From the IMG/VR virus record IMGVR_UViG_3300044691_000591, positions 1 through 64,000 of that record: DNA of 64,000 nt; one strand, written 5' to 3'. The notes below the pieces were generated by a model that ran no database searches, was not told the origin of the DNA, and saw nothing but the letters and a program-made list of their open reading frames with translations. Positions 45,470 to 60,746 of this stretch are shown one piece after another. Each line of letters starts with the position of its first letter. The first letter of the stretch is position 1. A program made the position numbers and the translations under genes. The stretch comes from a virus.

Positions 45470-46354
45470 GTGGCGCTCCCCACAGCGACCCTCGGCGACA
45501 TCGCCCAGCGGCAGACCACCGCCCTGGCCGAACACACCCACGCCGCCAACTACACCGCCACTGCCCCGCTCACCTACGCCCTCCAGGCGGCGCAGACCGC
45601 AGCCACCCACGACTGGATCCGCACCACCGGCGGCCTGCACACGCCACCAACACCCGCCCAAGCCAAGGCCCTCGCCGCCTGCACCCGCGCCCGCGTCACC
45701 GCCGCCATGACCGGACAGGCCGCCCACGCCCAGCGCATCGCCACCGCAGCCGCCCACACCGCAGGCCAACTCGGCACCCAGCAAGCCACCGCCTTCGCCC
45801 GCCACGCCGGATTCACCGCACCGGCTGCCGAAGCCCCACCCCTCGCCGACGACGTCACCGTCGGAATCGACCAACTCCCGCACGGCATCAAGCAGGACCA
45901 CGACGCCGCCATCGCCATGCTCACCGCCGCAACCCTGACCGCCCTCGGCCTCGCCGCGATCACCGCGGCCGTCAACCGGGCCAAACGCGCAGCCGGCCGC
46001 ATCCGGGCCACCATCGGATGGTCCGTCACCCAGCAGGTCGCAGCCGGCGTCACCGCCGTGGCGCGAGCCATCGGGCGCGTGCTCGCGGGCGACGGCGTGA
46101 TGGTCATGTGGGTGGCCGAACCCGGCGCCTGCCCCGCCTGCCAGGGCTACGCCGGACACTCCGTCAAACCCGGACGCCTCTTCCCCGGCGGCCTGTCCAC
46201 GGACCCGGCGAAGGTCTCCTACCCCGGCGCGATCAACGGCCCCCCGCGGCACATCAACTGCCGCTGCACCACCATCCCCTGGCACCCGGACTGGCAGGAC
46301 CCCACACAGCCACCCATGGCCAGCGTCCTGCAGGACCGCGCCACCCGCCCCTGA
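45470..46354 (+). CDS. Mu F-like minor head protein
   Basis: A 294-residue protein. GTG 45470 follows GGAGG by 7 nt; an earlier in-frame TTG at 45434 was rejected. The C-terminal part MWVAEPGACPACQGYAG, then PHINCRCTT (as RHINCRCTT) is the signature of the Mu F/SPP1 gp7 family of minor head proteins, which bind the portal and the packaged DNA end. It is first in the rightward head operon. Confidence 0.85.
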   Translation: MALPTATLGDIAQRQTTALAEHTHAANYTATAPLTYALQAAQTAATHDWIRTTGGLHTPPTPAQAKALAACTRARVTAAMTGQAAHAQRIATAAAHTAGQLGTQQATAFARHAGFTAPAAEAPPLADDVTVGIDQLPHGIKQDHDAAIAMLTAATLTALGLAAITAAVNRAKRAAGRIRATIGWSVTQQVAAGVTAVARAIGRVLAGDGVMVMWVAEPGACPACQGYAGHSVKPGRLFPGGLSTDPAKVSYPGAINGPPRHINCRCTTIPWHPDWQDPTQPPMASVLQDRATRP

Positions 46355-46398
46355 TCATGACCAGTCGAGACGCCCCGCGCGGGCGCGAAGGAGAACCG

Positions 46399-46914
46399 AT
46401 GGCCCGCCCGCTCGGCGACGACGAGAAGGCCGAGATTCGCCGCCTGTACGCGGATGGCCTGGGCCGCAATGCCATCGCCCGCACGATTGACCGGGCCGTG
46501 GGTACGGTCACGGCCTACTGCGCCGCGCAGGGCCTGCTCTTCGACCGGTCCGAGACCGAGGTCGCCGTCCACGCCCGCAAGGTCGACCTCGCCGCGATGC
46601 GCGCCCAGTCCGCCATCGAGCTGCAGGAGGATGCGGACCGGCTTCGGCGGCAGATGTGGGAGCCGGCCGTGGTCTTCGCGTTCGGCGGCAAGGAGAACGT
46701 GTACACCGAGGAGCCGGTGTCCGAGCCGCCGCCGGCGGACAAGCGCACGTTGATGGCCGCCGCTGTGATGGCCTACGACCGGTCGTTGAAGCTGTCGCCG
46801 CCGAAGGCCGGGGGCGGCTCGCAGGAGAACCGGAGCATGCTCGGGACGCTGGCCGAGGACCTGCGCGCATGGGTGTCCGAGAACGAGTCGGACCGCCCGG
46901 AGCAGGTCGACTGA
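46399..46914 (+). CDS. Small terminase subunit
   Basis: A 171-residue protein starting MARPLGDDEKAEIRRLYADG behind AAGGAG; an ATG at 46357 is an alternative. The N-terminal helix-turn-helix (LGRNAIARTIDRAVGTVTAY, landmark) and the coiled-coil middle fit a small terminase that recognises phage DNA. It precedes the large terminase by 21 nt. Confidence 0.8.
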   Translation: MARPLGDDEKAEIRRLYADGLGRNAIARTIDRAVGTVTAYCAAQGLLFDRSETEVAVHARKVDLAAMRAQSAIELQEDADRLRRQMWEPAVVFAFGGKENVYTEEPVSEPPPADKRTLMAAAVMAYDRSLKLSPPKAGGGSQENRSMLGTLAEDLRAWVSENESDRPEQVD

Positions 46915-46935
46915 CGATGCGCCAGGCGATGCGGG

Positions 46936-48195
46936 GTGTCCATGCGCGGACTTAGCCTCGCCCTGTCCCCGAAGCAGATGGGGTTCATCGCGAACTCGAC
47001 GGCGCGCATCAACATCGCCCACGGGTCGGTGCGGTCGGGCAAGTCGATCGCGGCGACGGTGGCGTTCTTCATCGCCGTCAACGAGGCCCCGGACTCGGGG
47101 CTGGTGCTCATCATCGGCCGCTCCCTGCAGACCATCGAGCGCAACGTCCTGGACCCGATGATGGACCCGGAGCTGTTCGGGTCCCTGTCAGCGGATGTGC
47201 AGCACACGCGTGGAGCGACGACGGCAACGATCTTGGGCCGCACCGTGCACCTGATCGGCGCCTCGGATGCGCGCGCGGAGGGCCGGCTGCGCGGCCTGAC
47301 GGCCTGCCTGGCCTTGGTGGATGAGGCGACGCTGCTGCCTGAGGGCTTCTGGAACCAGCTTCTGGGCCGCCTGTCCGTGCCTGGGGCGAGGCTGCTGGCG
47401 AGTACTAACCCGGACTCGCCGCAGCATTGGCTGCGGCGTGACTTCCTGCGCCGCGAGGACACCCTGAACCTGCGCTCGTGGCACTTCACCCTGAAGGACA
47501 ATCCTTCGCTTACCCGCGAGTACGTCGACGGTCTGTCGGCGGAGTACACGGGCCTGTGGCGCAAGCGGTTCCTGGAGGGCCTGTGGGTCGCCGCGGAGGG
47601 CGCGATCTTCGACATGTGGGACGAGGACGTCCACGTCGTCGACCGGGTGCCCATCGGCCGGATCCGGCGCTGGATCGCGCTGGGCGTGGACTACGGCACG
47701 ACGAACCCGTTCCACGCAGTGCTGATCGGCATCAGTGAGGAGCGGCGCCTGTACGCGGCGGCGGAGTGGCGCTACGACTCGCGGCACATGCGCCGTCAGC
47801 TCACCGACGTGGAGTACTCGGAGCGGCTGCGCGCCTGGATGTCCGACGTGCCGCACATCGGCCCGGTGCGCCCGCAGTACGTGGCCGTGGACCCGTCGGC
47901 GGCCTCGTTCAAGACACAGCTGTTCCGCGACAAGCTGCGCCCCCACGCGGCCGACAATGCGGTCCTGGACGGCATTCGCACCATGTCGTCGCTCCTGGCG
48001 GGCCGCCAGCTCTTCGTTGACGCCTCGTGCACGGAGTTGATCTCTGAGATCCCCGGCTACTCGTGGGACGACCGCGCCCAACTGTTGGGAGACGACAAGC
48101 CCATCAAGGTCGCCGACCACGGAATCGACGGGCTCCGCTACGGCCTGATGACCACCCGGTCCCAGTGGCAGCACCAGCTCGCCCCCGCCGCCTAA
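46936..48195 (+). CDS. Large terminase subunit
   Basis: A 419-residue protein. Walker A is GSVRSGKS (residues 30-37), Walker B is CLALVDEAT, and the nuclease domain has LGVDYGTT and VAVDPSAA. It is the ATPase/nuclease that pumps DNA into the prohead and cuts it. GTG 46936 is used; ATG 46942 is equally possible. It lies between small terminase and portal as usual. Confidence 0.95.
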   Translation: MSMRGLSLALSPKQMGFIANSTARINIAHGSVRSGKSIAATVAFFIAVNEAPDSGLVLIIGRSLQTIERNVLDPMMDPELFGSLSADVQHTRGATTATILGRTVHLIGASDARAEGRLRGLTACLALVDEATLLPEGFWNQLLGRLSVPGARLLASTNPDSPQHWLRRDFLRREDTLNLRSWHFTLKDNPSLTREYVDGLSAEYTGLWRKRFLEGLWVAAEGAIFDMWDEDVHVVDRVPIGRIRRWIALGVDYGTTNPFHAVLIGISEERRLYAAAEWRYDSRHMRRQLTDVEYSERLRAWMSDVPHIGPVRPQYVAVDPSAASFKTQLFRDKLRPHAADNAVLDGIRTMSSLLAGRQLFVDASCTELISEIPGYSWDDRAQLLGDDKPIKVADHGIDGLRYGLMTTRSQWQHQLAPAA

Positions 48196-48214
48196 CCCCT
48201 CTTGGAGACCCGAC

Positions 48215-49903
48215 ATGCCGCTGCCCCTGGACGACGCCCCCTGGCCGCCGCCGGACCTCAACCCGGTGTGGAACTCGCTGCAGGTGTGGCACGCCTGGTA
48301 TGCGGGGCTGCCCAAGGACCTGCAGTCCGTGTACGGGGGTGTGGCCACCGCGGGATCGTCGCCGCTGGCCCGGCAGTTCTTCGACATGGACAAGCCCGGC
48401 TCCAACCAGGTGTCCGTGGTCGCGCGCACGTTCTGGGGCGAGCCGATCCCGCCTGGTGAGCGGCGCGTCAAGTTGCACATTCCGCTGCCGGGCGACATCT
48501 CGGAGCTGTCGGCGTCGTTGCTGTACTCCGAGCTGCCGCAGATCCGGGCCGCGGACACCAGCGGCCTGGGCACGGCGACGACGGACCGCATTGCCCGTTA
48601 CCTGGACGACCGTGGCCACGCCACCCTGCTGCAGGGCGCCGACACTGGCTCGGGGCTGGGCGGCGTCTATCTGCGGGTGGTGTGGGACGCGACGCTGCGC
48701 GATCACCCGTGGCTGACCGTGGTGCACCCGGACATGGCCGTCCCGGAGTGGCGCTGGGGCTGCCTCACCGCGGTGACGTTTTGGCAGACTGTGCAGCAGG
48801 ACCCGTCGGGCACCGAGGAGTGGCGGCTCCTCGAATACCACACCCCGGGCCTGATCGAGTACGGCCTGTACAAGGGATCGCTGACGGAGATCGGCGAACG
48901 CCTGCCCCTCGCCGCACACCCCAAGGGCGTGGAGCTGATGGGGCAGCTCACCGACAAGACGCCGGGCCGCGAGCAGCAGGTCACCGGCGTCGACAAGCTC
49001 CTGGCCGTGTACATCCCCAACATGCTCCCGAACCGGGTGTGGCGTACCGTGCCCGGCTCCGAGCCGCTGGGGCGCTCGGACTACACGGGCATCGAGCAGC
49101 TCTTCGACTCCCTGGACGAGACGTGGACGTCGTGGATGCGGGACCTGCGCCTCGCCCGCTCCCGGATCATGATCCCGCAGTCGATGCTGGAGACCGACGG
49201 CCCGGGGCAGGGGGCGATCTTCCGCGACAAGGAAGTGTTCGTGCAGATCAACAGCCTCGCCGACGGCACCAGCGGCGAGGCCATCACCATGAACCAGTTC
49301 CAGATCCGCGTGAAGGAGCACGAGGACACGTGCACCGCGATCGTCAACCAGGTCCTGCGGTCCGCCGGCTACTCATCGCAGTCCATGGGCGCGGACAAGG
49401 GCATGGTCGCGGTGACGGCCACGGAGATCGCCGCCCGCAAGGAGCAGTCCCTCGCCACCCGGGACACGAAGATCCTGTACCAGCGTCCGGCGCTGGATCA
49501 GGTGTTGAAGGTGCTGCTGGCCGTGGACGCGAAGTGGTTCAAGGCTGCCGTGGACCCGACGGCGGACCTGACCATCGCGTGGCCGGACGCGGTGCAGGCC
49601 GACCCTCAGTCCCAGGCCACCACGCTGTCGTTCCTGAAGGCCGCCTCCGCAGCATCCACGGACACCATGGTGCGGATGCTGCACCCGGAGTGGGAGGACA
49701 TTGAGGTCGCCGAGGAGGTGGCCCGCATCCGCGAGGAGTCCGCACCGCCGGTCACCCTCACCGCCCCTGCTGCACAGCCGACAGGGCAGGTTCAGCAGCA
49801 GGGCCAGGAACCGGGGCAGGCGGAGGAGGGCACGGCGGCCTCGGCGTGGGCGGACCAGGCCGATTCGGAGGGAGCAGCCCAGCCGGGGGCTGCGGCGGCG
49901 TAG
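48215..49903 (+). CDS. Portal protein (SPP1 gp6-like)
   Basis: A 562-residue protein starting MPLPLDDAPWPPPDLNPVWN. Landmarks are VRLHIPLPGDISE-like (as VKLHIPLPGDISE), GSGLGGVYLRVVWD, a long helix FDSLDETWTSWMRDLRLARS and the disordered Gln/Pro/Ala-rich tail. Size and position after the large terminase identify the portal ring subunit. Confidence 0.9.
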   Translation: MPLPLDDAPWPPPDLNPVWNSLQVWHAWYAGLPKDLQSVYGGVATAGSSPLARQFFDMDKPGSNQVSVVARTFWGEPIPPGERRVKLHIPLPGDISELSASLLYSELPQIRAADTSGLGTATTDRIARYLDDRGHATLLQGADTGSGLGGVYLRVVWDATLRDHPWLTVVHPDMAVPEWRWGCLTAVTFWQTVQQDPSGTEEWRLLEYHTPGLIEYGLYKGSLTEIGERLPLAAHPKGVELMGQLTDKTPGREQQVTGVDKLLAVYIPNMLPNRVWRTVPGSEPLGRSDYTGIEQLFDSLDETWTSWMRDLRLARSRIMIPQSMLETDGPGQGAIFRDKEVFVQINSLADGTSGEAITMNQFQIRVKEHEDTCTAIVNQVLRSAGYSSQSMGADKGMVAVTATEIAARKEQSLATRDTKILYQRPALDQVLKVLLAVDAKWFKAAVDPTADLTIAWPDAVQADPQSQATTLSFLKAASAASTDTMVRMLHPEWEDIEVAEEVARIREESAPPVTLTAPAAQPTGQVQQQGQEPGQAEEGTAASAWADQADSEGAAQPGAAAA

Positions 49904-49915
49904 GCTGCCCGCCTG

Positions 49916-49935
49916 TGCACGCCAAGTGGCGTGCA
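49916..49935. other. Perfect 9-bp inverted repeat after the portal gene
   Basis: TGCACGCCA-AG-TGGCGTGCA starts 13 nt after the portal stop. The 2-nt centre is too small for an RNA hairpin loop without opening one or two pairs, so it is equally likely to be a protein-binding site. Confidence 0.5.
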
Positions 49936-49951
49936 GGTGGGGGGATGCGGG

Positions 49952-50164
49952 ATGTCGGTACGTCTGCGCGGCGGGGTGGGCCCGGTTCGGGTGTCGGTGC
50001 CGCTCATGCCCCGAGGGATGCTGCGCGCCTTCGTGATGCTCTTCGTCTACACCGGCGTCGGGGTGTGGCTGCTGTGCAAGTTCATCTACTGGACCGCCCC
50101 GGTGTGGATCTGGCGGACCTCGCATCGGGCGTGGCTGCGCTCGCGGGCAGGCCAGCAGCCATAG
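49952..50164 (+). CDS. Small membrane protein
   Basis: A 70-residue protein with an Arg-rich N-terminus and one membrane helix (MLRAFVMLFVYTGVGVWLLC, landmark) followed by Trp-rich ends. It is the last gene of the rightward head operon. It could be a late membrane protein such as a superinfection-exclusion factor, but nothing proves this. Confidence 0.6.
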   Translation: MSVRLRGGVGPVRVSVPLMPRGMLRAFVMLFVYTGVGVWLLCKFIYWTAPVWIWRTSHRAWLRSRAGQQP

Positions 50165-50182
50165 CGATCCGGTGCGGGCGGC

Positions 50183-50524
50183 TCAGCCGGTGACGGTCAG
50201 CGGATAGGCGGGGATGGCGACGATCTCCGGATTGTCGGTGACCCGCACCGACACCTGGTACTGACCCGGCGCCAGCTGCGTCGTACCACCCGGCCCGACC
50301 ATGCACAGGGCCGTGTACCAGCCGCCCGCAGCAGTCGGGGTCACGCCGTCCCAGGAGCCCGCATACCAGTGCGCACCAACAAGAGCAGCCCCAGGCCCGG
50401 TGAACGCGAACTCGACCGTGTCGCCGGTCGGGTCGTGCGGGGCACCGCCTGAGGTCGCCCTCACCCAGGCCGGAACGAACTCCAGGGATGCCGCAGAAAT
50501 GGACCTGGTCACGGGCACAGTCAC
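50183..50524 (-). CDS. Ig-like structural protein
   Basis: A 113-residue, all-beta protein starting MTVPVTRSISAASLEFVPAW. The alternating strands and the ending GQYQVSVRVTDNPEIV suggest an Ig-like or BACON-type domain. It sits with two other leftward structural-type genes and is probably a virion decoration. Confidence 0.65.
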   Translation of the reverse strand: MTVPVTRSISAASLEFVPAWVRATSGGAPHDPTGDTVEFAFTGPGAALVGAHWYAGSWDGVTPTAAGGWYTALCMVGPGGTTQLAPGQYQVSVRVTDNPEIVAIPAYPLTVTG

Positions 50525-50533
50525 GGGCTCACC

Positions 50534-51778
50534 TTACGCATCGGGTTCACGGGCGGTCCAGCGCTGGACACCGGCCCTGGCCGTCCAGCGGGACTGTTCG
50601 GGGGCGCAGGCCGTCCAGCGCTCGGGGGCGGCCCTGACGGTGAAGACAATGTCCCGACTGGCGGCGCCTGCGACGATCGGCCTCGCGGTGCCGGTCTCCA
50701 CGGCCGGCCCGAGGGCGGCGGCCTTGGCGCCCGTCAGCGGCTGGGCCGCCTCGACGGATACGGCCACGCCGAGGGTTTGACTCGCCATGTGCGCCAGGGG
50801 CTGTGCGGACTCGGTCTGCGCGGCGACAGGAAGCGGCGCGGCCTTGGCCCCGGCGACGGCCTGCCCGGCGGCGACCTCAACCGCAGCACCGGGCGTGGCC
50901 GTCTTGCCGCCGGCCGGGGCCTGCGCGGAGTCGGCCGTGGCGGCAGGGCCGAGGAGGCTTGCCTTCGTGCCGGCCAGTGCCTGTGCCGACTCGGCCGCGG
51001 CGGCGAAGGCCAGGGCAGCGGCCTTGGCGCCCGTGGCGGGCTGCGCCGTCTCGGTGGCGGCTCCGATACTGAGCGGTGTCGTCTTCGTCCCGGTCACCGA
51101 CTGGGCGGACTCGACGGCGCCCGCAAAAGTGATGGTGGCCGTCTTGGCGCCGGCGAGCGACTGCGCGGCGTCGGGCCCCGCGGCGATGCCGAGGGTGGCC
51201 GACTTCGCCCCCGTGAGCGTCTGGGTGGTCTCAATGCCGCTGGCGATGCCGAGGGTTGCGCCTTCGGTCACGTCCGCGGCGGCGAAGTTGTCGTAGCGGA
51301 GCGCGCTGGCTGAGTCGCCGCGGATGCCGACGCTGGTGCCGGTCGTGACGGCCGTGTTGGTGACGGAGATGCGCAGGGTGCCGTTGACGTATCCGGTGAT
51401 TGCCGAGCCGACTGCCTGGATCTTGACGACGTCGCCCGCTACGGCTGCCGCAGCGTAGGTGCCGATGCTGGTGAAGCTGCTGCCGACAACCTGGAACAGG
51501 TCCCAGCTCGTGCCGTTGTTGCGCAGCAGGTAGCCCTGGGTGAAGCCCACATTTCCGCGGCACCACACGCCCTGGCTCGCCACCGTGGTTGCGGGGATGG
51601 CGACCTGCGCGTAGTGGTCGTTGCTGGCCATGGCGGTCGCGGCGCGCAGGACGATCGTGCCGCCTGCTGCGCCGGGTGAGAGCTGGTTGGAGACGACCGT
51701 CCAAGTGCCGGATACCTGGACCCAGCTGGCGCCGACAGCTCCGTCGGCGCGGTTGAAGTCGTCGGTGAACGTCGTCAC
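50534..51778 (-). CDS. Lectin-like protein with ten 20-residue repeats
   Basis: A 414-residue protein starting at GTG 51778 behind GGGAGG. Residues 1-173 have a concanavalin A/LamG-like jelly roll (TTFTDDFNRADG, then GVWCRGNVGFTQGYLLRNNG, then GIRGDSASALRYDNF). Residues 174-373 are ten tandem repeats of exactly 20 residues. The last 41 residues contain three RWTA copies. It is probably a sugar-binding virion protein. A longer upstream frame was rejected. Confidence 0.75.
   Translation of the reverse strand: MTTFTDDFNRADGAVGASWVQVSGTWTVVSNQLSPGAAGGTIVLRAATAMASNDHYAQVAIPATTVASQGVWCRGNVGFTQGYLLRNNGTSWDLFQVVGSSFTSIGTYAAAAVAGDVVKIQAVGSAITGYVNGTLRISVTNTAVTTGTSVGIRGDSASALRYDNFAAADVTEGATLGIASGIETTQTLTGAKSATLGIAAGPDAAQSLAGAKTATITFAGAVESAQSVTGTKTTPLSIGAATETAQPATGAKAAALAFAAAAESAQALAGTKASLLGPAATADSAQAPAGGKTATPGAAVEVAAGQAVAGAKAAPLPVAAQTESAQPLAHMASQTLGVAVSVEAAQPLTGAKAAALGPAVETGTARPIVAGAASRDIVFTVRAAPERWTACAPEQSRWTARAGVQRWTAREPDA
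50660..51259 (-). repeat. Ten tandem 60-bp (20-residue) coding repeats
   Basis: The repeats share a consensus like A-T-L-G-I-A-A-x-x-E-S-A-Q-x-L-T-G-A-K-x with no insertions. First copy: ATLGIASGIETTQTLTGAKS; second: ATLGIAAGPDAAQSLAGAKT. The later copies drift, mainly to Ala and Pro. The fixed period suggests a beta-strand solenoid or regular fibre. Confidence 0.85.
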
Positions 51779-51810
51779 GTCGGCGCCTCCCGCTGTCGGC
51801 CCGGTGGGAG

Positions 51811-52257
51811 TTACGCGGCGGAGGTGGCCCGGTAGAGGTCCGCGATGGCCAGGACGAAGGTGTTGCCGTCCGGCGTCCACGGCAGGTCGTGCTTGGTGAG
51901 CGGGATGAGGTCCGCGTCGGTGCCGGTGGTGGTATCGGGGTCGTAGCAGACCACGACGGCGCTGATCGCGTTGCCGGTCGGTGCGGTGAAGGTGACGTCG
52001 GCGGCGTCGACGGCCACGCGGTCGCTGGTGTTGTCGACGGTGACGGTGACGCTGGCGAGCGCCTTCCTGGTGACGGTGGTCTGCTCGTTGGTGGTGCCGG
52101 CGACCACGGAGCCGAAGTCGGCCTTGTCGCGCAGGACGGTGTCGGTCTCCAGGCCGCTGGTCTCCAGGGCGATGAGGACGAGGCCGTCGTTTGCGGCGGG
52201 CAGGCTGGCGTAGTAGGCCACCTTGCCGAGGGCGATGTTGAAGACGATGTTGGCCAC
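51811..52257 (-). CDS. Structural-type protein upstream of the repeat protein
   Basis: A 148-residue protein starting at GTG 52257 behind GGAGGAG. It has beta-rich segments KALASVTVTVDNTSDRVAVD and AISAVVVCYDPDTTTG (landmarks) like other phage surface proteins. It is first in a three-gene leftward unit. No family recognised. Confidence 0.7.
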   Translation of the reverse strand: MANIVFNIALGKVAYYASLPAANDGLVLIALETSGLETDTVLRDKADFGSVVAGTTNEQTTVTRKALASVTVTVDNTSDRVAVDAADVTFTAPTGNAISAVVVCYDPDTTTGTDADLIPLTKHDLPWTPDGNTFVLAIADLYRATSAA

Positions 52258-52393
52258 GCTGATCTCCTCCACTCGGTCGAGTCGGGGGTGAACTGCGCGT
52301 TCGGCTTCGCGCGGGTCGCTGCCCTTGCTGTCGTGCTGCCAGCGTAGGGCATCAGGGGCGGCCATGGTCATCGTCGCCGGGCTGGCCGTGACA

Positions 52394-52440
52394 TGCCGCA
52401 GCCCCCACTCGGCGGGGGGATGCGAGTGGGGGCTGCGGTG
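52394..52440. terminator. 16-bp stem terminator-like hairpin
   Basis: Arms 52396-52411 and 52423-52438 pair perfectly over 16 bp (CCGCAGCCCCCACTCG), with two further wobble pairs and an 11-nt loop. It lies in the 291-nt gap between the leftward structural genes and the transfer module, so it insulates them. No T-run. Confidence 0.7.
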
Positions 52441-52548
52441 CACGGGTGTACCAACCGTGCACCCAGCATGCCCGGTTGCGGGGCACACCGTGGGCGAATC
52501 ACGCTGTTTCTGCTGCGCCGTCGGTGACTTGGCGTCACGATGGGGCGC

Positions 52549-52710
52549 ATGGAGACCGTCGTGACGGTGCAGGCGCGCAGCGAGGCCGAGGCTGAGCGGT
52601 GGCTGGAGAAGCTGCGCACGATCGGACTGGAGCCCGTGTCGGCGCCGAAGCAGCCGGTGGGGCGCGACAGGTGGATGGTCCGCGCCCGGCCCGCGACTCA
52701 GCCAGGTTGA
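52549..52710 (+). CDS. Small hypothetical protein
   Basis: A 53-residue frame starting METVVTVQARSEAEAERWLE. The alternating strand, then helix, then strand pattern is protein-like. It converges on the 52698 gene with a 13-nt overlap. There is no clear ribosome site, so it is less certain than its neighbours. Confidence 0.45.
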   Translation: METVVTVQARSEAEAERWLEKLRTIGLEPVSAPKQPVGRDRWMVRARPATQPG

Positions 52711-52898: not shown

Positions 52899-52947
52899 GC
52901 CCTCATCCTCTCGCGTCCACCGCGCCACCGTCCGGCGGTCGCGGGCG

Positions 52948-53580
52948 TCAGTGCCACGGTGCGGGGCCGGTCCGGGACGCCCAGGCGGCCAGGGCCTGCT
53001 CGTCGAACAGGCGCAGCCCGACGCGCCGGCCGAACGCGGCGGCCTGCTCGGTGAACGTGGACGTCGTCACCACTGCGGCGAGGTCTGCGCCGTGGATCTG
53101 CCGGTACGTGCCGTTGACCGCCTGCACCATCGGGGAGCGAACCGGGTTGCCGACGGCGTAGCGCTTGGCCTGGATCAGGATCCGGCGGCCGTCCGGGGTG
53201 GTGGCCAGTACGTCGGCGGCGAGGTCTCCTGCTCCGCCGACGACGGTGACGTTGCGGCAGCCGTCGCGGCGGCACAGGTCGGCGAGGGCGTGCTCGAACT
53301 GGGTCGGGCTGAGCCGCCGGAAGTCCATGACGGGGCGCCGGCAGTAGGGCGCGATGGTGCGGCGCTGAGCGCGGTGCATCTTGATGTACACGAAGCCAAT
53401 GGCGGTGGTGGCTGCGATTGCCGCAACGCAGATCATGATCTGCGGGTGCCGGGAGAGCCACAGTGCGGCGTCGAACAGGATCAGGGCGGCAATGATCAAC
53501 ATGGGGCCGGTGATCCGCTGGCGCTGTACGCGCCTGCGCAGTTGGGCTTTCGCCTGGCGCACGCGGAGAGGTGTGGTCAC
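52948..53580 (-). CDS. Membrane-anchored Mrr-like restriction endonuclease
   Basis: A 210-residue protein starting at GTG 53580 (overlapping the DNA-pump stop as GTGA). Two membrane helices lie in residues 22-65. The C-terminal nuclease has LSPTQFEHALADLCRRDG, then DLAADVLATTPDGRRILIQA (landmark) and QAKRY, i.e. the Asp, then Gln-x-Lys site of Mrr/DUF2034 nucleases. It sits next to the FtsK/TraB-type gene in the transfer module. A role in cutting incoming or modified DNA, or in element stability, is inferred. Confidence 0.85.
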   Translation of the reverse strand: MTTPLRVRQAKAQLRRRVQRQRITGPMLIIAALILFDAALWLSRHPQIMICVAAIAATTAIGFVYIKMHRAQRRTIAPYCRRPVMDFRRLSPTQFEHALADLCRRDGCRNVTVVGGAGDLAADVLATTPDGRRILIQAKRYAVGNPVRSPMVQAVNGTYRQIHGADLAAVVTTSTFTEQAAAFGRRVGLRLFDEQALAAWASRTGPAPWH

Positions 53581-55844
53581 GACTGGCTCATCTCGGGGAC
53601 AGGCAGCCCGTACTCGCCGCTGGCGGCCGGGTTGCGGAGGATGGTGCCGTCCTTGACCAGGCGGCTGACCGTGTTCTCGACCGTCTTGCGGGCGACACCG
53701 GACTGGTCCGTGATGGCGTCCAGGTGCAGGTAACCGACGTCCAGACCGATCGGGTCGCGGTACTCGCCCAGGACCGTGAGGATCTTCTCCTGCGCCGTCG
53801 GCTCCTTCGCCGCGGCCGGCTTCGCCTGACCGGGCGTCCACTTCGCGGCGCCGTCCTCATCCTCGTCTTCGGCGGCTGGCCCGACGGGGACCAGCGCGAT
53901 CTCGCCGCGGTCCTCCCACTCGGGCCAGTCGGCGGGAATGACGATCTGCTCCGGATCGAACAGGCCGGCGGCGGACTCCAGGATCCACAGGCGCATCATC
54001 TCGGCGCGGTCGTCGGGCCCGACGGTGTAGCCGACGCCGAACGTGCGGCTGGGGTCGTCGTCGGGGACCGTCGGGTCGTAGATCAGAGTGTCGTCCTCGT
54101 CGCTCTTCCAGAACGCCGGGATCTTGGCGGGGTCGACGCCCGCGAACGCGTCGGGCAGGTCGACCCGGTTCCTCTGGTCGCTGTCGGAGCGCAGCAGGAT
54201 CAGGGCGCCGCCGTAGAACACGTTGTCGCGGATGGAGGTGTCCGAGCCCATCTTGTCGAGGTTCAGGATCTGCCCGCACAGGATCAGGATCAGGCCCAGT
54301 GAGCGGCCCTGCTCGGCCAGGGCGGCGATGATGAATGCCGCCTCGGCCTTGTTGGTTGCCTTCTCGCCGAGGAGCTGGGCGAACTCGTCCAGGACCACGG
54401 CGGTGTAGGGCATGTCGGCGGTCGGGACGAAGTTCTTCATCCGCAGCCGCTGCGACTGCTCGACGCGGTGCAGGAGGAGGGCGTAGGCCACGCGCAGGGC
54501 GCCCATCGCACCGTCGATACCGCAGCCGGGGTAGGTGGCCATGTCCTCGACGTCGGGGTTGCTGGAGCCCTTGGGGTCGGCGTAGATGATCGCGACCCGG
54601 TTGACGTGGTAGCTGAGGCACAGGAGCTGCAGCGCCCCGCCCTTCCCGGAGCCGGTCACCCCGGCGATCAGGACGTGCCGGGCGCCCATCCTGGTGTCGT
54701 ACAGCTGCACGCGGGCAGGGCGGCCGGAGATGCCGGTACCCAGGTTCACGAACCCGTTGGCGTTGGCGAGCAGCGTCTCGGGGCCAGGCAGGGGCTGGCC
54801 GGCTTCCAGGGGTGAGCGGTCCATGAGCCGGAGCTTGGCCCGGCGGGGGTTGTTCGTGGGTTCGACGGACGTCAGCAGGGTGGTGGTGCGAAGTGCTCCG
54901 GCGATGCGGTATGAGTCGGGGGCGGTGACGGCGTCGGTGTCCTCGTCGGCGACGACCCATGCGGCGATGCCACCGGTTGCAGGGTCGGGGACGATGCCCT
55001 CCAGGTGGGTGCCGGGCATGCAGCCGCCCTTGTGGCCCACACGCCGCAGCCACAGTGCCTCCAGGGCGCTGTACTCGGCCACGTCGACGGTCGGCGCGAC
55101 CACGTCGACGTGGATGTGGCGAGAGCTGGTGTGCGGACCGTCAATGAGGTGGACCCGCGCCTCGGGGACGCCGTAGACCCCGGACACGGTCTCGGCGGTG
55201 ACCGAGACGGGGCGGCCGGGCATCGAGTGGATCGTGCCCTCCCACGCCTCCGGGCTGTAGCCGGTCAGGGTGAGGTGCTGGCCGGGGTGCGCGCCGTCCT
55301 CGCTGGAGATCCAGTCGTGCCAGTACTGCAGGACGTCGCGCTCCGGCGTCGGCTCTGGGACTGGGGCGGCGGGCGCGCGGTAGGCGGCGACCGCGCGGGG
55401 CTTGCGCAGGACGCGGCGCAGCGCGAAGTGGATGTAGCCGGTCGCGGACCACCAGGCCACCGACACAAAGCCGGCCACGGAGGGCAGCGTCATCCAGCCG
55501 GCGGCCAGGGAGTCGATTCCGGGCCAGCCGTACTGCGTCGCGGTGGCCGCCGCGGTGGCGGTCGCGATCGCGGAGACCAGGAACGGCTCGCGGTGGGCGC
55601 GCACGATGTCACCGCCCGGCAGGGCGTCCAAGTGCTCATCGGACAGCAGGTGCATGTAGTTCGCGCCGGCGGCCAGGGCGGGTACGGCCAGCAGGCAGCT
55701 GACGGTACTCGCGGCCTGACCGTCCAGCAGCGGCAGGGTCAGGGCGGTCGCCAGCGGGGCGGCGACCTGAGCCACGGCAAACCGCTTCTCGGCGGCAGGG
55801 TTCGGCAGCGCCTTGGCCGCGGGCGTGGTGTCGTTGGTGGTCAC
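53577..55844 (-). CDS. FtsK/TraB-type DNA translocase of conjugative type
   Basis: A 755-residue protein starting at GTG 55844. Hydrophobic segments in residues 25-150 anchor it in the membrane. The motor domain has Walker A GVTGSGKGG (about 395-403) and Walker B TAVVLDEFAQ (about 481-490). A winged-helix C-terminal domain (about 680-755: QEKILTVLGEY, DQSGVARKTVENTVSRLVK) follows. This is the layout of Streptomyces TraB/TraSA pumps, which bind short DNA repeats at a clt site and move double-stranded DNA between cells; a phage packaging role is unlikely because a large terminase is present. It is coupled to the Mrr-like gene by 4 nt. Confidence 0.88.
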   Translation of the reverse strand: MTTNDTTPAAKALPNPAAEKRFAVAQVAAPLATALTLPLLDGQAASTVSCLLAVPALAAGANYMHLLSDEHLDALPGGDIVRAHREPFLVSAIATATAAATATQYGWPGIDSLAAGWMTLPSVAGFVSVAWWSATGYIHFALRRVLRKPRAVAAYRAPAAPVPEPTPERDVLQYWHDWISSEDGAHPGQHLTLTGYSPEAWEGTIHSMPGRPVSVTAETVSGVYGVPEARVHLIDGPHTSSRHIHVDVVAPTVDVAEYSALEALWLRRVGHKGGCMPGTHLEGIVPDPATGGIAAWVVADEDTDAVTAPDSYRIAGALRTTTLLTSVEPTNNPRRAKLRLMDRSPLEAGQPLPGPETLLANANGFVNLGTGISGRPARVQLYDTRMGARHVLIAGVTGSGKGGALQLLCLSYHVNRVAIIYADPKGSSNPDVEDMATYPGCGIDGAMGALRVAYALLLHRVEQSQRLRMKNFVPTADMPYTAVVLDEFAQLLGEKATNKAEAAFIIAALAEQGRSLGLILILCGQILNLDKMGSDTSIRDNVFYGGALILLRSDSDQRNRVDLPDAFAGVDPAKIPAFWKSDEDDTLIYDPTVPDDDPSRTFGVGYTVGPDDRAEMMRLWILESAAGLFDPEQIVIPADWPEWEDRGEIALVPVGPAAEDEDEDGAAKWTPGQAKPAAAKEPTAQEKILTVLGEYRDPIGLDVGYLHLDAITDQSGVARKTVENTVSRLVKDGTILRNPAASGEYGLPVPEMSQS

Positions 55845-55848
55845 AGTC

Positions 55849-56217
55849 CTACTCCTGCCGGTACCAGGTGCGGTTGGCCATCTCGACGGGGGAGCGGTCG
55901 CGGGCTTCCTTGATGCCGCCGTGGGTGGTGACGGTCGCCTGCTCGGCGGCGACCGCCGCGCGGGATGCCTCGTCGGCGGCGTTGGCGTAGGCGAGCGCGG
56001 CCGTGGACACGCCCTGCATGATTCGCGAGACCTCGCGGGTCTCGGCAACGGTCGCCGGATCGACCTTGAGGGCGGCGGTCTGCTCGGCGATGCGCCCGGT
56101 GTCCTTGGCCTGGGCGTCCATCGCGGAGGCCATCTTCTTGTGCCTCTGGGTGGCGCGCCGCACGTCCCGGGCCAGGGCCCGCGTCTCGCGCAGCAGTTCG
56201 CCATAGGTCAGTGCCAC
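55849..56217 (-). CDS. Spd-like helical protein
   Basis: A 122-residue, all-helical protein starting MALTYGELLRETRALARDVR. The C-terminus VTTHGGIKEARDRSPVEMAN, then RTWYRQE resembles the end of the next gene's product (RHGGIYRAVVDSP, then REFYMDKQ). The position, 5 nt before the DNA-pump start, fits plasmid 'spread' genes that help intramycelial transfer. Role inferred. Confidence 0.7.
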   Translation of the reverse strand: MALTYGELLRETRALARDVRRATQRHKKMASAMDAQAKDTGRIAEQTAALKVDPATVAETREVSRIMQGVSTAALAYANAADEASRAAVAAEQATVTTHGGIKEARDRSPVEMANRTWYRQE

Positions 56218-56218
56218 G

Positions 56219-57886
56219 TCAGCCCCCCTGCTTGTCCATGTAGAACTCCCGCTCGGCGGGCGTGGTCAGAGGCGAGTCGACGACTGCCCGATAGATGCCG
56301 CCGTGCCGGGTCTCGGCGTTGGCGGCCAGGACGCGCACCGCTTCACTGCCGCGCTGGGCGCTCTTCTCGATCTCCTCGGCCCTCAGGCGCAGCACCTGGG
56401 ATCGTTCCGCGAGGCGCGACAGAAGCGCGACGATCCGGGCACCCCCATGGACGCTCTTCGCGTTCTCGGCCAGGCGCTGCGCCCGGGTCGCCATCTCCAC
56501 GGCCTGCAGGCGGGTGGCCTTGCTGCCCTCGGCGACGCGGCCCATCGCGGCCTTCTTGTCACCCAGGCGGCGTTCGAAGGCCTTGAGGGTGCGGACCTCG
56601 CCGCGGCTCATCGTGTGGCTCGCCCCGTCGGCGACGAACTCGACGGCCTTGTCTCCGACGGAGGTCACCCGTGCGGGCTCTGCAGCAGTCGGGGCCGGCT
56701 TCTTGGCGAGGTCGACGGTCGACCCGCTGGCCGGCGGCAGCTTCGGAGCGGCTGACTTCTTGGGCTTGACGGCGTTGCGGGCCCGGGTGTCGCTCATCTT
56801 CTTGCCCTCCGCCTTGTCGGCGGCGGTGCGGTCGTCCCAGCCGTCGACAGCGCCGTCCTTGTAGGCCCTGGCCTGTCCGACGGTCGCGGCGACGCGGGTG
56901 CCGTCGCGGTACCCGGCCTCCCGCGCGGGGCGGGTGCGCAGCTTCGGAGCGGCGGCCGGCTCGGTTGTCGCGGCCGGGCTCGGCTTGGCCGCGGCGCTGG
57001 TGTCCTTCACCAGATCGACGGGCGCAGTGTCGTCGGGCTTGATCGCAGCGGCGGTCTTGGTGTTCAGGCTCTTCGGGTCGGCCTTCTTCGTCAGGTCCGG
57101 TCCGTCGGGGCGCGCGGCAGCGGGCGTCGAGGGTTCCGGCGTCTTGGCTGCGGTGCCGCCTTTCGCGCTCGCGGGCCCCGCGGTCTTGGCGTCCGCCCCC
57201 TTGGGGCTCGGGCCCTTGGCGGTCTTGGTGTCGCGGTAGTCCCGGTCGTCGTTCTTGGAGACCGTGTCCGCTGTCGCGGCCTTCGCGTTCGACGTCTTCG
57301 CGGCGCTACTGTCCGCCTTCTTCAGATCCTTGTTGTCCCGGGCTGCAGTGTCGGCCTTCGACGTCCTGGCGTCGGAGGTCTTGGCGTCCGTCGCGGCCTT
57401 GCGGTCGCGGTTGGTCCTGCCCTGCTGCGTCTTGTTCCGGAGGTCGGCCAGCTTGCTGTCGCGGGTGGCGTGGGCCTTGCCGTCGTGCCGGTGCGTGCGC
57501 TCGGCCTTGTTCGTGCCGGTGCTGGTAGCGCCGGAGACCCGGGCCTCAGTGATGGTGTGGGTCCGCTTGACCGCTGTACCGCCGCGGGCCAGCCGGGCGG
57601 CCAGGGCGTGCACCAGGGCGGCCACGGCGCTGCCGCGGTTGTTGTCGCCTGGACTGGCCTTGCCGTTCTTGCCGTTGCCGCCCTTGGCGCTGGCCTCCTC
57701 GGAGACCTCGCCCATGGTCGCCGTGGTCCCCAGCGGCTTCACCGGCCGGGCGGGCTCGACCGGCGTCAGGATCCGCGCAAGCGGGCCCGGCGCCGTGGCC
57801 GGGGCGGCTGCAGCAGCGGGTCCTGCGGGCGCGGCCGACTGCTCGGTCACACCGGCCGGGACGGGCGGCGCGGTCGCTGTCGCCAT
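56219..57886 (-). CDS. Large Spd-like protein with lysine-rich disordered region
   Basis: A 555-residue protein starting at ATG 57886 with GGAG upstream. The N-terminal half is low-complexity, rich in Ala, Lys, Asp and Thr (repeated KTxDARTS-like segments). The C-terminal 170 residues are helical (RLQAVEMATRAQRLAENAKS) and end in the HGGI...DSP...FY motif shared with the neighbour. It is probably part of the transfer machinery. No enzymatic motif. Confidence 0.65.
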   Translation of the reverse strand: MATATAPPVPAGVTEQSAAPAGPAAAAAPATAPGPLARILTPVEPARPVKPLGTTATMGEVSEEASAKGGNGKNGKASPGDNNRGSAVAALVHALAARLARGGTAVKRTHTITEARVSGATSTGTNKAERTHRHDGKAHATRDSKLADLRNKTQQGRTNRDRKAATDAKTSDARTSKADTAARDNKDLKKADSSAAKTSNAKAATADTVSKNDDRDYRDTKTAKGPSPKGADAKTAGPASAKGGTAAKTPEPSTPAAARPDGPDLTKKADPKSLNTKTAAAIKPDDTAPVDLVKDTSAAAKPSPAATTEPAAAPKLRTRPAREAGYRDGTRVAATVGQARAYKDGAVDGWDDRTAADKAEGKKMSDTRARNAVKPKKSAAPKLPPASGSTVDLAKKPAPTAAEPARVTSVGDKAVEFVADGASHTMSRGEVRTLKAFERRLGDKKAAMGRVAEGSKATRLQAVEMATRAQRLAENAKSVHGGARIVALLSRLAERSQVLRLRAEEIEKSAQRGSEAVRVLAANAETRHGGIYRAVVDSPLTTPAEREFYMDKQGG

Positions 57887-57908
57887 CACGGACTCCTCTC
57901 TCGATTGA

Positions 57909-58014
57909 CCCCCCACCCACCCCCCACCCGACCTGAGAGAACAGGGTCGGGGCTCTGACCTGCACGGGAGAGCCGTATGCGCGCTCTCTTGGCGGGTGGG
58001 GGGTGGGTGGGGGG
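57909..58014. repeat. Perfect 22-bp G/C inverted repeat with G-quadruplex potential
   Basis: Arms 57909-57930 (six C, A, three C, A, six C, A, three C, G) and 57993-58014 are exact reverse complements, separated by 62 nt. The right arm on the plus strand is GGGTGGGGGGTGGGTGGGGG plus one more G, four G-tracts with 1-nt loops. It lies between the starts and ends of two transfer genes and could be a clt-type transfer locus or a strong transcription regulator. Confidence 0.9.
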
Positions 58015-58020
58015 AGATGA

Positions 58021-58590
58021 CTAACGGCTGCGTGCGGTCAGCAACTTCTTCGCCTTGCCGCCGACCAGCACGACACCGATCGACCCCAGGACGATCAGCC
58101 CGACGTTCGAGCCGGTCCCCGCCCCACCGCCGGTGCTGCTGGTGCTCGACGCGTCGGCCAGGGCGGGCGAACCGGTCGCCGGGTAGATCGAGCCGCAGTC
58201 CGACACCCCGCCGAAGTTGTTGCCGGCCTTCGCGATGCACGCCTCCACCGCGAGACGACGAGCCCGCTGAGCAGGGGTTTCCTGCGCAGCGGCCTTCGCC
58301 TGGGCGGCGGCCTGCTGCTCCTGGGCCAGCTGCACCCTCGCCGCATCCACGGCGACCTGGCCGGCGCGGATATGCGCGTTGGCCTGGTTGGCCTCGTACT
58401 GCGACCACGTGAACATGCCAGTGGCCGCCACGGCCGCGAAGCCAAGACCGAGACCGGCCTTGGCGCGAGGGCTGAGCTTGGCCGGCGGCGGGGGCTCCGT
58501 CGGCTTCGGCGTCTGGTAGGGCTGATAGGGCATCGAGCTGATGTTGTAGCCGGGATCGTTGTAGGGGGACTGGTAGCGGTACTCGGTCAT
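58021..58590 (-). CDS. Membrane protein of the transfer module
   Basis: A 189-residue protein starting MTEYRYQSPYNDPGYNISSM. It has a Pro/Tyr-rich N-terminus, a membrane helix at about 48-66, a helical Gln/Ala-rich stalk, two Cys in EACIAKAGNN and VSDCGSIYP that may pair, and a second membrane helix near residue 165-182. It overlaps the DUF2637 gene by 4 nt. Probably an Spd-type membrane protein. Confidence 0.7.
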   Translation of the reverse strand: MTEYRYQSPYNDPGYNISSMPYQPYQTPKPTEPPPPAKLSPRAKAGLGLGFAAVAATGMFTWSQYEANQANAHIRAGQVAVDAARVQLAQEQQAAAQAKAAAQETPAQRARRLAVEACIAKAGNNFGGVSDCGSIYPATGSPALADASSTSSTGGGAGTGSNVGLIVLGSIGVVLVGGKAKKLLTARSR

Positions 58591-59486
58591 TGCTCTTCTC
58601 CATTCAGGGCTGGGACATCTGCGCGGTCGAGGATCTCCGCGCGGATCGTCTTCGCGACGGTGTCCGAAGGCAGCCCGTGGCCGGCTCGGTCGATCGCTTG
58701 GGCGAACTCGTTGGCGGTCGGCTGGCGCCGGAGGCGTTGGAACTCGGCGTGGAAAATCGGCTTGGCGATCTCCACCCACTCGTCGAGTGGGCGACGGGGC
58801 GGTCGCTTCCCGGCGGCGGAACGGGGCGCCTTCGGTCGACGAGTCGTCGGCGGCTTGGCCGGCTTCTCGTCGACGGAAGGTGCGTCGGAACGGTCGACGG
58901 AAGCCGTCGGGTCGTCGACGGTTCGGGCCGGTTCCGACGCGACGGGAAGCGTCGGTTCGACGCCGCTCCCGTCGACGGGAGCCCGTGTTCCGTCGGTCGT
59001 TCCGTCGTCGGCAGCGGACTGATCCGTCGCAGCATCCGTCAATGACTCGGTCGGCTCCCGTCGCGGGGTGAGGAACTTCTTGATCTGTCCCATGAGGACT
59101 GCGAATGACAAAAGCGCGCCGCAAGGTGGGACCGCTGCGACGACGTAGGTCATGGGCGCGGCGCCTGCTCCGACGCCGGCAACGTTGAGGGCAACGGAGC
59201 CGACGGAGCCGATCAGAGTCAGGCAGATGGCCCACCCGTCAGTCCGGCGGAGCAGGTTGGCGACGAGGACCATCACCTCGCCGAGGACGATGAAGGTGTC
59301 GACGGTGCCGGGCCACGCCCAGGCGCGAGCTGCTCTGAGGCCGTGGCCGCTGGCAACGTCGTGGAGGTGCTCGTAGGAGAGCCAGAACGCTGCGGCGGTC
59401 AGGGCGATGGAGAGGATGACCGCGAGCAGCATGAGGCGCCGGATAGTCTCCGGCGAAGCGACGGGACTGTCGTCGGTCTCGGTCAT
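58587..59486 (-). CDS. DUF2637 membrane protein with C-terminal winged-helix-like domain
   Basis: A 299-residue protein starting MTETDDSPVASPETIRRLML. Four membrane helices (about 15-140) include WAWPGTVDTFIVLGEVMVLV, the DUF2637 signature found in Streptomyces integrative elements. After an acidic linker, the last 70 residues (RPLDEWVEIAKPIFHAEFQR, then LPSDTVAKTIRAEIL) look like a winged helix. It may tether element DNA to the membrane near the pump. Confidence 0.8.
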   Translation of the reverse strand: MTETDDSPVASPETIRRLMLLAVILSIALTAAAFWLSYEHLHDVASGHGLRAARAWAWPGTVDTFIVLGEVMVLVANLLRRTDGWAICLTLIGSVGSVALNVAGVGAGAAPMTYVVAAVPPCGALLSFAVLMGQIKKFLTPRREPTESLTDAATDQSAADDGTTDGTRAPVDGSGVEPTLPVASEPARTVDDPTASVDRSDAPSVDEKPAKPPTTRRPKAPRSAAGKRPPRRPLDEWVEIAKPIFHAEFQRLRRQPTANEFAQAIDRAGHGLPSDTVAKTIRAEILDRADVPALNGEEQ

Positions 59487-59488
59487 GG

Positions 59489-60379
59489 TCAGCTCCCCTG
59501 CTTGGCGGCGGTGAGCGCCTGCTCGTTGTGCCCCCGGATGAAGTCGGCCAGGGGTCCGGTGTTCTCGAACCACTCGGTGCTGCCGACGCGCTGGTCGGCG
59601 AAGCGCTTGTGCATGGCCTGCTCCATGCGGCGGTCACCGGCAATGAGCAGGACGATGTCGCTGGTGCGCAGCGAGAGGGCGCTCACCCGGGCGCGGAGGC
59701 TGCTGGTCGTGCCGATCTTGACGCGGCTGCCGTTGCCGATGAAGTAAACGTGGGCCTTGTGCTTGCCCTCCGGGACCGGCCAGTTGAAGCGCGGCTCTGC
59801 CGGCTTGGCAGCCATGGGCGCGGTCGCCGGCGCGTCGAGGTTGAGGTGGGCGAGCGCAGCCAGCCGCCTTTCCAGCCGAGCCTTCTGCCTCTTCGCTTCG
59901 AGCGCTACGCCGCGCTGCTTGTTCCGCTCGATCAGGAGGTGGTCGATCTCGGACTGATCGTCCGGGTGCAGGGACTGGGTCTTCATCCAGGCGCGCCACA
60001 GCCACGTCACGGGGATGGCGAGCATCGAGATCACCGCGCCGTCCCAGGGTCCAGTGCGAGGCCAGCCCGTCCAGGTGATCAGCGAGAGGATGATCACCTG
60101 GAGCAGCAGACCGCCGCGGCGGCCGAGAAAGGCGCCCTCGGAGTCGTAGCGGTTGTCCCACTCGACCCAGGCGCACCAGAGCCAGAGCAGGCCAAAGATG
60201 CCGCCGGCGAGATACATCTGGACTTGGTCCTGCCACGTCTTGGCCCATGGAGCGAGCAGGGACCCAAGGAGCCCCGCCTCGCAGGTGGCAGTCACGAACA
60301 TCAGGACGGCGGTGATCCATCCGGTGACTGCTGCCTCGTGGTCGCGGGACTCCTTGGTGGGCTGCTCGATCGTGCTCAC
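59489..60379 (-). CDS. Four-helix membrane protein fused to a T5orf172/GIY-YIG domain
   Basis: A 296-residue protein starting at GTG 60379 behind GGAG. Four membrane helices occupy residues 20-132, a charged coiled coil follows (150-185), and residues 205-280 hold a T5orf172/MUG113-type domain (HVYFIGNGSRVKIGTTSSLR, then EQAMHKRF and TEWFEN). The C-terminal enzyme-like domain would face the cytoplasm. Fusing a nuclease-like fold to an SpdB-like membrane part is unusual. Confidence 0.8.
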   Translation of the reverse strand: MSTIEQPTKESRDHEAAVTGWITAVLMFVTATCEAGLLGSLLAPWAKTWQDQVQMYLAGGIFGLLWLWCAWVEWDNRYDSEGAFLGRRGGLLLQVIILSLITWTGWPRTGPWDGAVISMLAIPVTWLWRAWMKTQSLHPDDQSEIDHLLIERNKQRGVALEAKRQKARLERRLAALAHLNLDAPATAPMAAKPAEPRFNWPVPEGKHKAHVYFIGNGSRVKIGTTSSLRARVSALSLRTSDIVLLIAGDRRMEQAMHKRFADQRVGSTEWFENTGPLADFIRGHNEQALTAAKQGS

Positions 60380-60743: not shown

Positions 60744-60746
60744 GCG

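What the first reader, a model, noticed from the sequence alone, without database searches (positions are those of the whole stretch)
45470..60379. A virion programme and a plasmid-type DNA-transfer programme in one element
The window encodes terminase, portal, capsid, tape measure and lysis genes, and a TraB/FtsK-type membrane DNA pump with a winged-helix tail, Spd-like proteins, a DUF2637 protein and an Mrr-like nuclease in one coupled operon. The large terminase already serves packaging, so the second pump is best explained by conjugation-like transfer. Phage-plasmids are known in Streptomyces, but a complete siphovirus set beside a complete clt-type transfer set suggests an element that can spread both as particles and between mycelia.
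Basis: partly seen in the sequence, partly recalled or inferred. Interest (0 to 1): 0.85.

Follow-up and report, generated by a model that had tools for sequence, protein, structure and literature searches.

The report
Phage that also carries conjugation genes
An 85-kb virus of a Streptomyces-like bacterium carries both a full set of virus-particle genes and a plasmid-style DNA pump for moving DNA from cell to cell; such double elements were already known in Streptomyces, but relatives show that this virus family keeps replacing the pump at the same place, and that a fast-changing hairpin lies beside most of the pumps.

Summary
Observation confirmed. The window is part of an 84.8-kb IMG/VR virus record holding a complete siphovirus set and, 3.7 kb past the portal, an operon with a TraB/FtsK-type dsDNA translocase (53577-55844, 755 aa), DUF2637 and Mrr-like proteins. 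It is one element: a second contig (21.5 kb, 99.99% identical) spans the join, and closed Streptomyces plasmids show the same arrangement. The pump lies outside chromosomal FtsK; its C-terminal winged helix matches the pIJ101 transfer protein, not FtsK-gamma.

The idea is not new: Streptomyces plasmid-phages that conjugate and also make particles (pZL12, pFP4) are published. New here: (1) this virion's head and packaging genes are unrelated to pZL12's; (2) five distinct 80-93-kb elements with this virion lineage all keep a pump in that slot, from five pump lineages, whereas smaller prophages with related terminase generally lack it; (3) the operon's 134-bp gap holds the element's strongest inverted repeat, and the same gap in relatives holds hairpins of different sequence whose arms co-vary: a candidate cis-acting transfer site (clt).

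Conjugation and particle formation by this element remain inferred. It has a serine integrase and no detectable ParA/ParB.

The parts
14862..16442 (+). large serine recombinase (integrase)
   Evidence: Pfam Resolvase 2.7e-17, Zn_ribbon_recom, Recombinase
22483..23343 (-). endolysin, glycosyl hydrolase family 25
   Evidence: Pfam PF01183 5.7e-24
29666..31687 (-). tail fibre/spike with pectate-lyase-like domain
   Evidence: phrog_14726, PF12708
32696..33874 (-). Gp37-like siphovirus tail protein
   Evidence: PF14594 1.2e-62
33874..34800 (-). distal tail (Dit) protein
   Evidence: SPP1_Dit 2.5e-12
34804..39894 (-). tape measure protein with NlpC/P60 domain
   Evidence: phrog_4197 1.7e-140; PF00877
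40842..41411 (-). tail tube protein
   Evidence: PF25681 7e-25
43652..44512 (-). major head protein
   Evidence: phrog_267 1.4e-72; orthologues in NZ_CP107843/NZ_CP046906 annotated as P22 coat type
44521..45312 (-). scaffold-like protein
   Evidence: weak phrog_2592 match at C-terminus; syntenic in relatives
45470..46354 (+). minor head protein
   Evidence: phrog_115 9.7e-13
46399..46914 (+). probable small terminase (HTH)
   Evidence: phrog_5536; HTH_38 weak; position before TerL; inference
46942..48195 (+). terminase large subunit
   Evidence: phrog_2 2e-48; Terminase_6N
48215..49903 (+). portal protein
   Evidence: phrog_533 5e-101; SPP1_portal
52948..53502 (-). membrane-anchored Mrr-like nuclease
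   Evidence: Mrr_cat 5.5e-24; next to the pump also in G032 and G033
53577..55844 (-). TraB/FtsK-type dsDNA translocase: N-terminal helical membrane part, RecA motor (Walker A GSGKGG at about 398-403), C-terminal winged helix
55849..56217 (-). 122-aa transfer-operon protein, conserved beside the pump
   Evidence: orthologues in KITA, pSAM1, pSLE1, CALI and viral contigs
56219..57886 (-). 555-aa low-complexity transfer-operon protein with conserved C-terminus
   Evidence: orthologues at the same place in family members examined
57887..58020 (-). candidate cis-acting transfer site (clt): long inverted repeat 57909-58014 with internal direct repeats
   Evidence: strongest inverted repeat of the element; arms co-vary across 30 loci
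58021..58590 (-). 189-aa membrane protein of the transfer operon
   Evidence: orthologues in the same position
58587..59486 (-). DUF2637 multi-span membrane protein (Spd-like by position only)
   Evidence: PF10935 3.3e-15; no BLAST similarity to pIJ101 SpdB
59489..60379 (-). membrane protein with C-terminal T5orf172/GIY-YIG-type domain
   Evidence: T5orf172 1.1e-6, MUG113 9.6e-7
60519..62334 (-). seven small translationally coupled genes at the head of the transfer operon
   Evidence: most junctions are 4-bp overlaps; 61614-61865 has homologues in KITA, G032, G033 and QHH

Best explanation
One temperate actinophage element with two exit routes. Its virion genes make a siphovirus particle. Its transfer operon encodes a hexameric FtsK/TraB-type motor anchored in the membrane, which recognises a cis-acting site on the element through a C-terminal winged helix and pumps double-stranded DNA into a neighbouring hypha; DUF2637 and the other small membrane proteins help it spread through the mycelium. 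Shown here: gene content, single element, purifying selection, family assignment of the pump, repeated replacement of the pump in the same slot, a conserved co-varying hairpin in the operon. Inferred: dsDNA transfer between cells, that the hairpin is the recognised site (clt), and particle formation.
For: Independent contig spans the join at 99.99% identity. The pump groups with plasmid and plasmid-phage translocases with support 1.0, apart from chromosomal FtsK; the family aligns with pIJ101 Tra over motor and C-terminus (310 columns, E 1e-6) and its winged helix with pIJ101 Tra (6e-6) but not FtsK-gamma; the fold matches FtsK motors and the conjugation protein TcpA. The nearest pump of a named organism is on a Kitasatospora linear plasmid with no annotated virion genes (67%). 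Five distinct 80-93-kb elements with this virion lineage all keep a pump by the portal: window clade; pSAM1 clade (NZ_CP046906); pSLE1 clade (NZ_CP107843, 78%); pZL12 type (NZ_CP109440, 78% to pZL12.71c); FtsK-like (G002). Among 27 other records with related terminase, one has a weak FtsK-domain match above cut-off and one below. dN/dS of the pump is 0.33-0.52. [quoted passage not shown] Streptomyces plasmid-phages conjugate and make infective particles (PMC4170104). Known clt sites vary in sequence but hold direct and/or inverted repeats, and pSVH1 TraB reads its repeats with its C-terminal winged helix (PMC3583192).
Against: No transfer or particle data for this element. Most operon partners have no known function. 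No similarity to pIJ101 SpdB. Walker A has G in place of S/T after the lysine throughout the family, so ATPase activity needs to be shown. No ParA/ParB found, so the resident state is unclear. Homology between this pump family and pZL12.71c, the best precedent, is not detectable by BLAST.
Confidence: 0.72

Rival explanations
1. The pump is a segregation or spreading motor: it moves copies of the element across cross-walls or into spores within one mycelium, doing the job of a partition system, and does not mediate transfer between strains.
For: FtsK-type fold; the window element has no detectable ParA/ParB; Spd/TraB complexes are known to act in intramycelial spreading (PMC12857230).
Against: Relatives with the same pump family also carry ParA/ParB (pSAM1, pSLE1, QHH-9511). 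The C-terminal domain matches a conjugative Tra, not FtsK-gamma. The pump family also occurs on plasmids where no terminase was found.
Confidence: 0.15
2. The transfer operon is a passenger, recently acquired from a plasmid, not used by the phage.
For: Pump and virion histories disagree; the closest pumps sit with other virions or none.
Against: All five distinct large elements with this virion lineage keep a pump in the same slot although of five different lineages; purifying selection; intact frames in 22 aligned members.
Confidence: 0.07
3. The pump assists the phage cycle itself (DNA ejection, packaging or superinfection control).
For: It lies near terminase and portal, also in the pZL12 group.
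Against: The same module is on a plasmid without annotated virion genes; prophages with related terminase generally lack it.
Confidence: 0.04
4. Assembly chimera of a phage and a plasmid.
For: The source is a metagenome-type virus record.
Against: Second contig 99.99% identical across the join; closed plasmids of isolates with the same order.
Confidence: 0.02

Closest known systems
Streptomyces plasmid-phage pZL12 (GQ919031) and pFP4
   Same: pZL12: about 90 kb, siphovirus genes plus an FtsK-type gene near the terminase; [quoted passage not shown] plasmid-phages are described as conjugating and producing particles (PMC3583192, PMC4170104).
   Different: Head and packaging genes of pZL12 not homologous; only weak tail similarity. 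Pump not detectably homologous by BLAST. Window has a serine integrase and no detectable ParA/ParB; pZL12 has ParA/ParB and an annotated integrase/recombinase. pFP4 was not compared by sequence.
pSAM1 (S. ambofaciens) and pSLE1 (S. leeuwenhoekii)
   Same: Same pump family (42-43%) and same operon order of 122-aa, ~555-aa and ~189-aa partners, hairpin gap included.
   Different: TerL, portal and capsid without detectable similarity; circular plasmids with ParA/ParB.
S. europaeiscabiei NBC_00515 plasmid unnamed2 (NZ_CP107843) and Streptomyces sp. QHH-9511 plasmid (NZ_CP046906)
   Same: Orthologous virion (MCP 68-70%, TerL 56-63%) with the same divergent layout, and a pump of the same family in the same slot.
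   Different: Pumps belong to the pSLE1 and pSAM1 clades; QHH-9511 has ParA/ParB and a tyrosine recombinase. I found no paper describing either.
Kitasatospora indigofera linear plasmid NZ_CP108209
   Same: Pump 67%, 122-aa protein 75%, same operon and hairpin.
   Different: No annotated virion genes.
TraB/Tra of pSVH1, pIJ101, pWTY27
   Same: FtsK-like motor with C-terminal winged helix; clt sites with direct and inverted repeats.
   Different: About 24% identity to pIJ101 Tra in the motor; below the plasmid_TraB equivalog cut-off.

Membership tests
Streptomyces conjugative plasmid-phage (pZL12/pFP4 kind) | complete tailed-phage virion set on the element | tested here: met
Streptomyces conjugative plasmid-phage (pZL12/pFP4 kind) | TraB/FtsK-type transfer gene on the same molecule | tested here: met
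Streptomyces conjugative plasmid-phage (pZL12/pFP4 kind) | virion genes homologous to pZL12 | tested here: not met
   only weak tail similarity; so not a member of the pZL12 lineage
Streptomyces conjugative plasmid-phage (pZL12/pFP4 kind) | propagates as a plasmid in the resident state | tested here: inconclusive
   no ParA/ParB, serine integrase present; contig ends share a palindromic repeat, as a circle broken there would
Streptomyces conjugative plasmid-phage (pZL12/pFP4 kind) | transfers by mating and by particles | not testable with these tools
   needs bench work
TraB/Tra dsDNA conjugation translocases | FtsK/SpoIIIE RecA motor | tested here: met
   PF01580 over cut-off; FtsK and TcpA by fold
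TraB/Tra dsDNA conjugation translocases | C-terminal winged helix like Tra | tested here: met
   hhalign to pIJ101 Tra C-terminus E 6e-6
TraB/Tra dsDNA conjugation translocases | score above the plasmid_TraB equivalog cut-off (NF041214) | tested here: not met
   46.8 bits against a cut-off of 800; a distant relative, not a TraB equivalog
TraB/Tra dsDNA conjugation translocases | binds repeats in a clt site | tested here: inconclusive
   candidate site found with direct and inverted repeats; binding not testable here
Chromosomal FtsK | groups with Streptomyces FtsK and has FtsK-gamma | tested here: not met
AICE (pSAM2/SLP1 kind) | integrase, Rep and TraB without virion genes | tested here: not met
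   full virion set present

The most novel reading that the evidence does not exclude
In these elements pump, partner proteins and a pump-specific co-varying hairpin (a new kind of clt) form an exchangeable transfer cassette that has been plugged beside the terminase/portal of several unrelated actinophage virion modules, so that DNA transfer by conjugation is a core, repeatedly replaced function of a whole class of phages.
Probability: 0.35. Interest if true: 0.7.

Novelty: new variant of a known kind. Interest (0 to 1): 0.5.

Why it matters
Conjugative plasmid-phages in Streptomyces were known, as far as I could find, from a few examples such as pZL12 and pFP4. Here the same double design is found in a second siphovirus lineage with unrelated head genes, and with a third virion type (G032), with the pump swapped several times in the same place. 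That makes it testable whether spread by mating is selected for in these phages and is not a leftover. The hairpin gives a specific candidate for the cis-acting transfer site of a large pump family whose clt is, as far as I could find, undescribed. PLSDB labels the phage-plasmids checked here 'non-mobilizable', although they carry a transfer pump.

Tried and rejected
Chromosomal FtsK origin of the pump: rejected. Contig chimera: rejected. sps palindrome of Streptomyces plasmids: no match better than 2 mismatches and none in the transfer region. Clusters of 8-bp direct repeats as clt: one at 58869-58978 inside the DUF2637 gene, not found in relatives, so not preferred. RNA-element reading of the hairpin: Rfam hits are all below gathering and are miRNA/snoRNA models; stem mismatches are A-C 13 and G-T 7, so no bias towards wobble pairs in the tra transcript; an expression-control hairpin is not excluded. 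SpdB homology of the membrane proteins: none by BLAST. ParA/ParB in the window element: none. pSAM1 is not the Samy prophage: in the paper Samy is a separate chromosomal prophage. The original pZL12 and phage-plasmid survey papers are not held, so the pZL12 results are cited second-hand.
Full report
What is there. The window is bases 1-64000 of an 84,849-base IMG/VR virus record, 67-73% GC. Both contig ends lie in the same palindromic repeat (GACGTACCAGCGTGTGGTACGTCGG), as expected if a circle was broken there, but this is not proof. A codon-usage gene call gave 140 genes. Leftward from 45312 to 29666: scaffold-like protein, major head protein, head-tail proteins, tail tube, tape measure, Dit, Gp37-like protein, fibre. 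Rightward from 45470 to 49903: minor head protein, small and large terminase, portal. Further left are a GH25 endolysin, a serine integrase, RecT and a YqaJ exonuclease; to the right a DnaB helicase. From 62334 down to 52698 runs a minus-strand operon: seven small coupled genes, a T5orf172-type membrane protein, DUF2637, 189-aa, [134-bp gap], 555-aa, 122-aa, pump, Mrr-like nuclease.

One element. G001, a 21,475-base contig of IMG/VR metagenome 3300044830, matches 40914-62388 at 99.99% and so joins capsid, terminase, portal and transfer operon. Closed plasmids NZ_CP107843 (S. europaeiscabiei, 92.8 kb, circular) and NZ_CP046906 (Streptomyces sp. QHH-9511, 91.2 kb, circular) have orthologous virion genes in the same divergent layout and a pump of the same family beside the portal.

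The pump. 755 aa; helical N-terminal membrane part, RecA motor, C-terminal winged helix (mean pLDDT 78). FtsK_SpoIIIE is over cut-off. No homologue was found in the phage collection, but there were matches in 135 Streptomyces/Kitasatospora plasmids. Foldseek finds FtsK motors (4e-12) and the conjugation protein TcpA. In a motor-domain tree it lies in a nine-member clade (support 1.0) with G033, G032/L098, L101 and a Kitasatospora linear plasmid that has no annotated virion genes, inside the pSAM1/pSLE1 family; chromosomal FtsK forms its own clade. Profile alignment reaches pIJ101 Tra over motor and tail, and the tail alone matches pIJ101 Tra, not FtsK-gamma. All 22 aligned members have GSGKGG at Walker A, with G where S/T is usual. 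Pairwise dN/dS is 0.33-0.52 within the clade; dS is approximate because of codon bias.

Virion and pump have different histories. Window head and packaging genes do not match those of pZL12, pSAM1, pSLE1 or the S. californicus plasmid; only two tail genes match weakly. Those elements carry their pump near their own, unrelated terminase. Conversely, elements with the window's virion lineage carry different pumps in the same slot: G002 an FtsK-like 737-aa pump; NZ_CP046906 a pSAM1-clade pump; NZ_CP107843 a pump 78% identical to pSLE1's; NZ_CP109440 a pump 78% identical to pZL12.71c, with its neighbour 51% identical to pZL12.72c. G032 has another type of terminase/portal and a pump 76% identical to the window's. 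Of 35 clear-homologue pump contigs in IMG/VR searched with both terminases, most also hold the pSAM1-type terminase and three the window type. Of the 34 best pump-bearing PLSDB plasmids, my comparison of the lists finds 18 with the pSAM1-type terminase, 3 with the window type and 13 with neither listed. In 28 records with related terminases only G002 has a strong FtsK-domain match; one more has a weak match above cut-off and one below it. The slot is therefore kept filled in the large elements while the sequence is exchanged, which argues for function.

The hairpin. The 134-bp gap 57887-58020 holds the strongest inverted repeat of the whole element (score 22, next 16), arms CCCCCCACCCACCCCCCACCCG/CGGGTGGGGGGTGGGTGGGGGG with 11-bp direct repeats inside. 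In pump-family relatives the gap at the same place holds hairpins of different arm sequence, for example TTCATTCCTCACTCACTCAC, TTCCTTCCCTCCTTCCTTCCC, AGTTCCTACTACTCATCCC. Over 30 non-redundant loci (window included) own-arm complementarity averages 30.5, arms of different loci 16.6, shuffled 13.4; 113 other intergenic gaps of similar size average 14.4 (Mann-Whitney p 3.5e-15; the loci are related, so this p is optimistic). Some members (for example S. californicus, L125) show only weak hairpins. A GCGGGGC-type inverted repeat also lies by the 72c gene of pZL12 and by its NZ_CP109440 relative, and the strongest inverted repeat of G002 is just past its pump. Known clt sites vary in sequence but share direct and/or inverted repeats, and pSVH1 TraB reads its repeats with its winged helix (PMC3583192). 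I therefore propose the hairpin as clt. Mismatch types show no wobble bias, which favours a DNA site, but transcript processing or expression control is not excluded.

What is known. [quoted passage not shown] That pZL12.71c is that tra gene is my inference from its annotation. pSLE1 was annotated by analogy with pZL12 (PMC4487206).

Limits. No bench data; the resident state of the window element is open (serine integrase, no ParA/ParB). The 175-kb G033 carries two terminases and may be a composite, so it is not used as key evidence. The gene calls are from a simple codon-usage script, so some starts may be off.

Noticed in passing
57887-58020: Long inverted repeat with internal direct repeats in the largest gap of the tra operon core; same-place hairpins with unrelated but co-varying arms in pump relatives; candidate clt or processing site.
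   Followed up: yes
53577-55844, residues about 398-403: Walker A reads GSGKGG in all 22 aligned family members: glycine replaces the usual Ser/Thr after the lysine; the G002 pump, of another lineage, has RSGKGM.
   Followed up: partly
55849-56217 and 56219-57886: The 122-aa and 555-aa proteins end alike (HGGI...SP...Y), suggesting a shared C-terminal motif, perhaps a common docking site.
   Followed up: no
14862-16442: Large serine integrase, but no ParA/ParB in the whole record, unlike several relatives; the element may integrate.
   Followed up: partly
L199, L201 (G033): 175-kb virus record with two window-type terminases; possible cointegrate of two phage-plasmids.
   Followed up: no
L187:14879-15724; L260:26127-26813: HNH endonuclease gene inserted just before the large terminase in G002 and S. 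europaeiscabiei, absent from the window.
   Followed up: no
9837-9929: ARAGORN tRNA-Ser (act) call overlaps the recT gene; probably false.
   Followed up: no
439-1368: DUF5131 (phage Gp37/Gp68) protein, 68% identical to one on the S. californicus phage-plasmid; shared outside virion and tra modules.
   Followed up: no
plasmids NZ_CP012383, NZ_LN831788, NZ_CP046906, NZ_CP107843, NZ_CP109440: PLSDB mobility typing calls these pump-bearing phage-plasmids non-mobilizable; such typing appears to miss TraB-type transfer systems.
   Followed up: no
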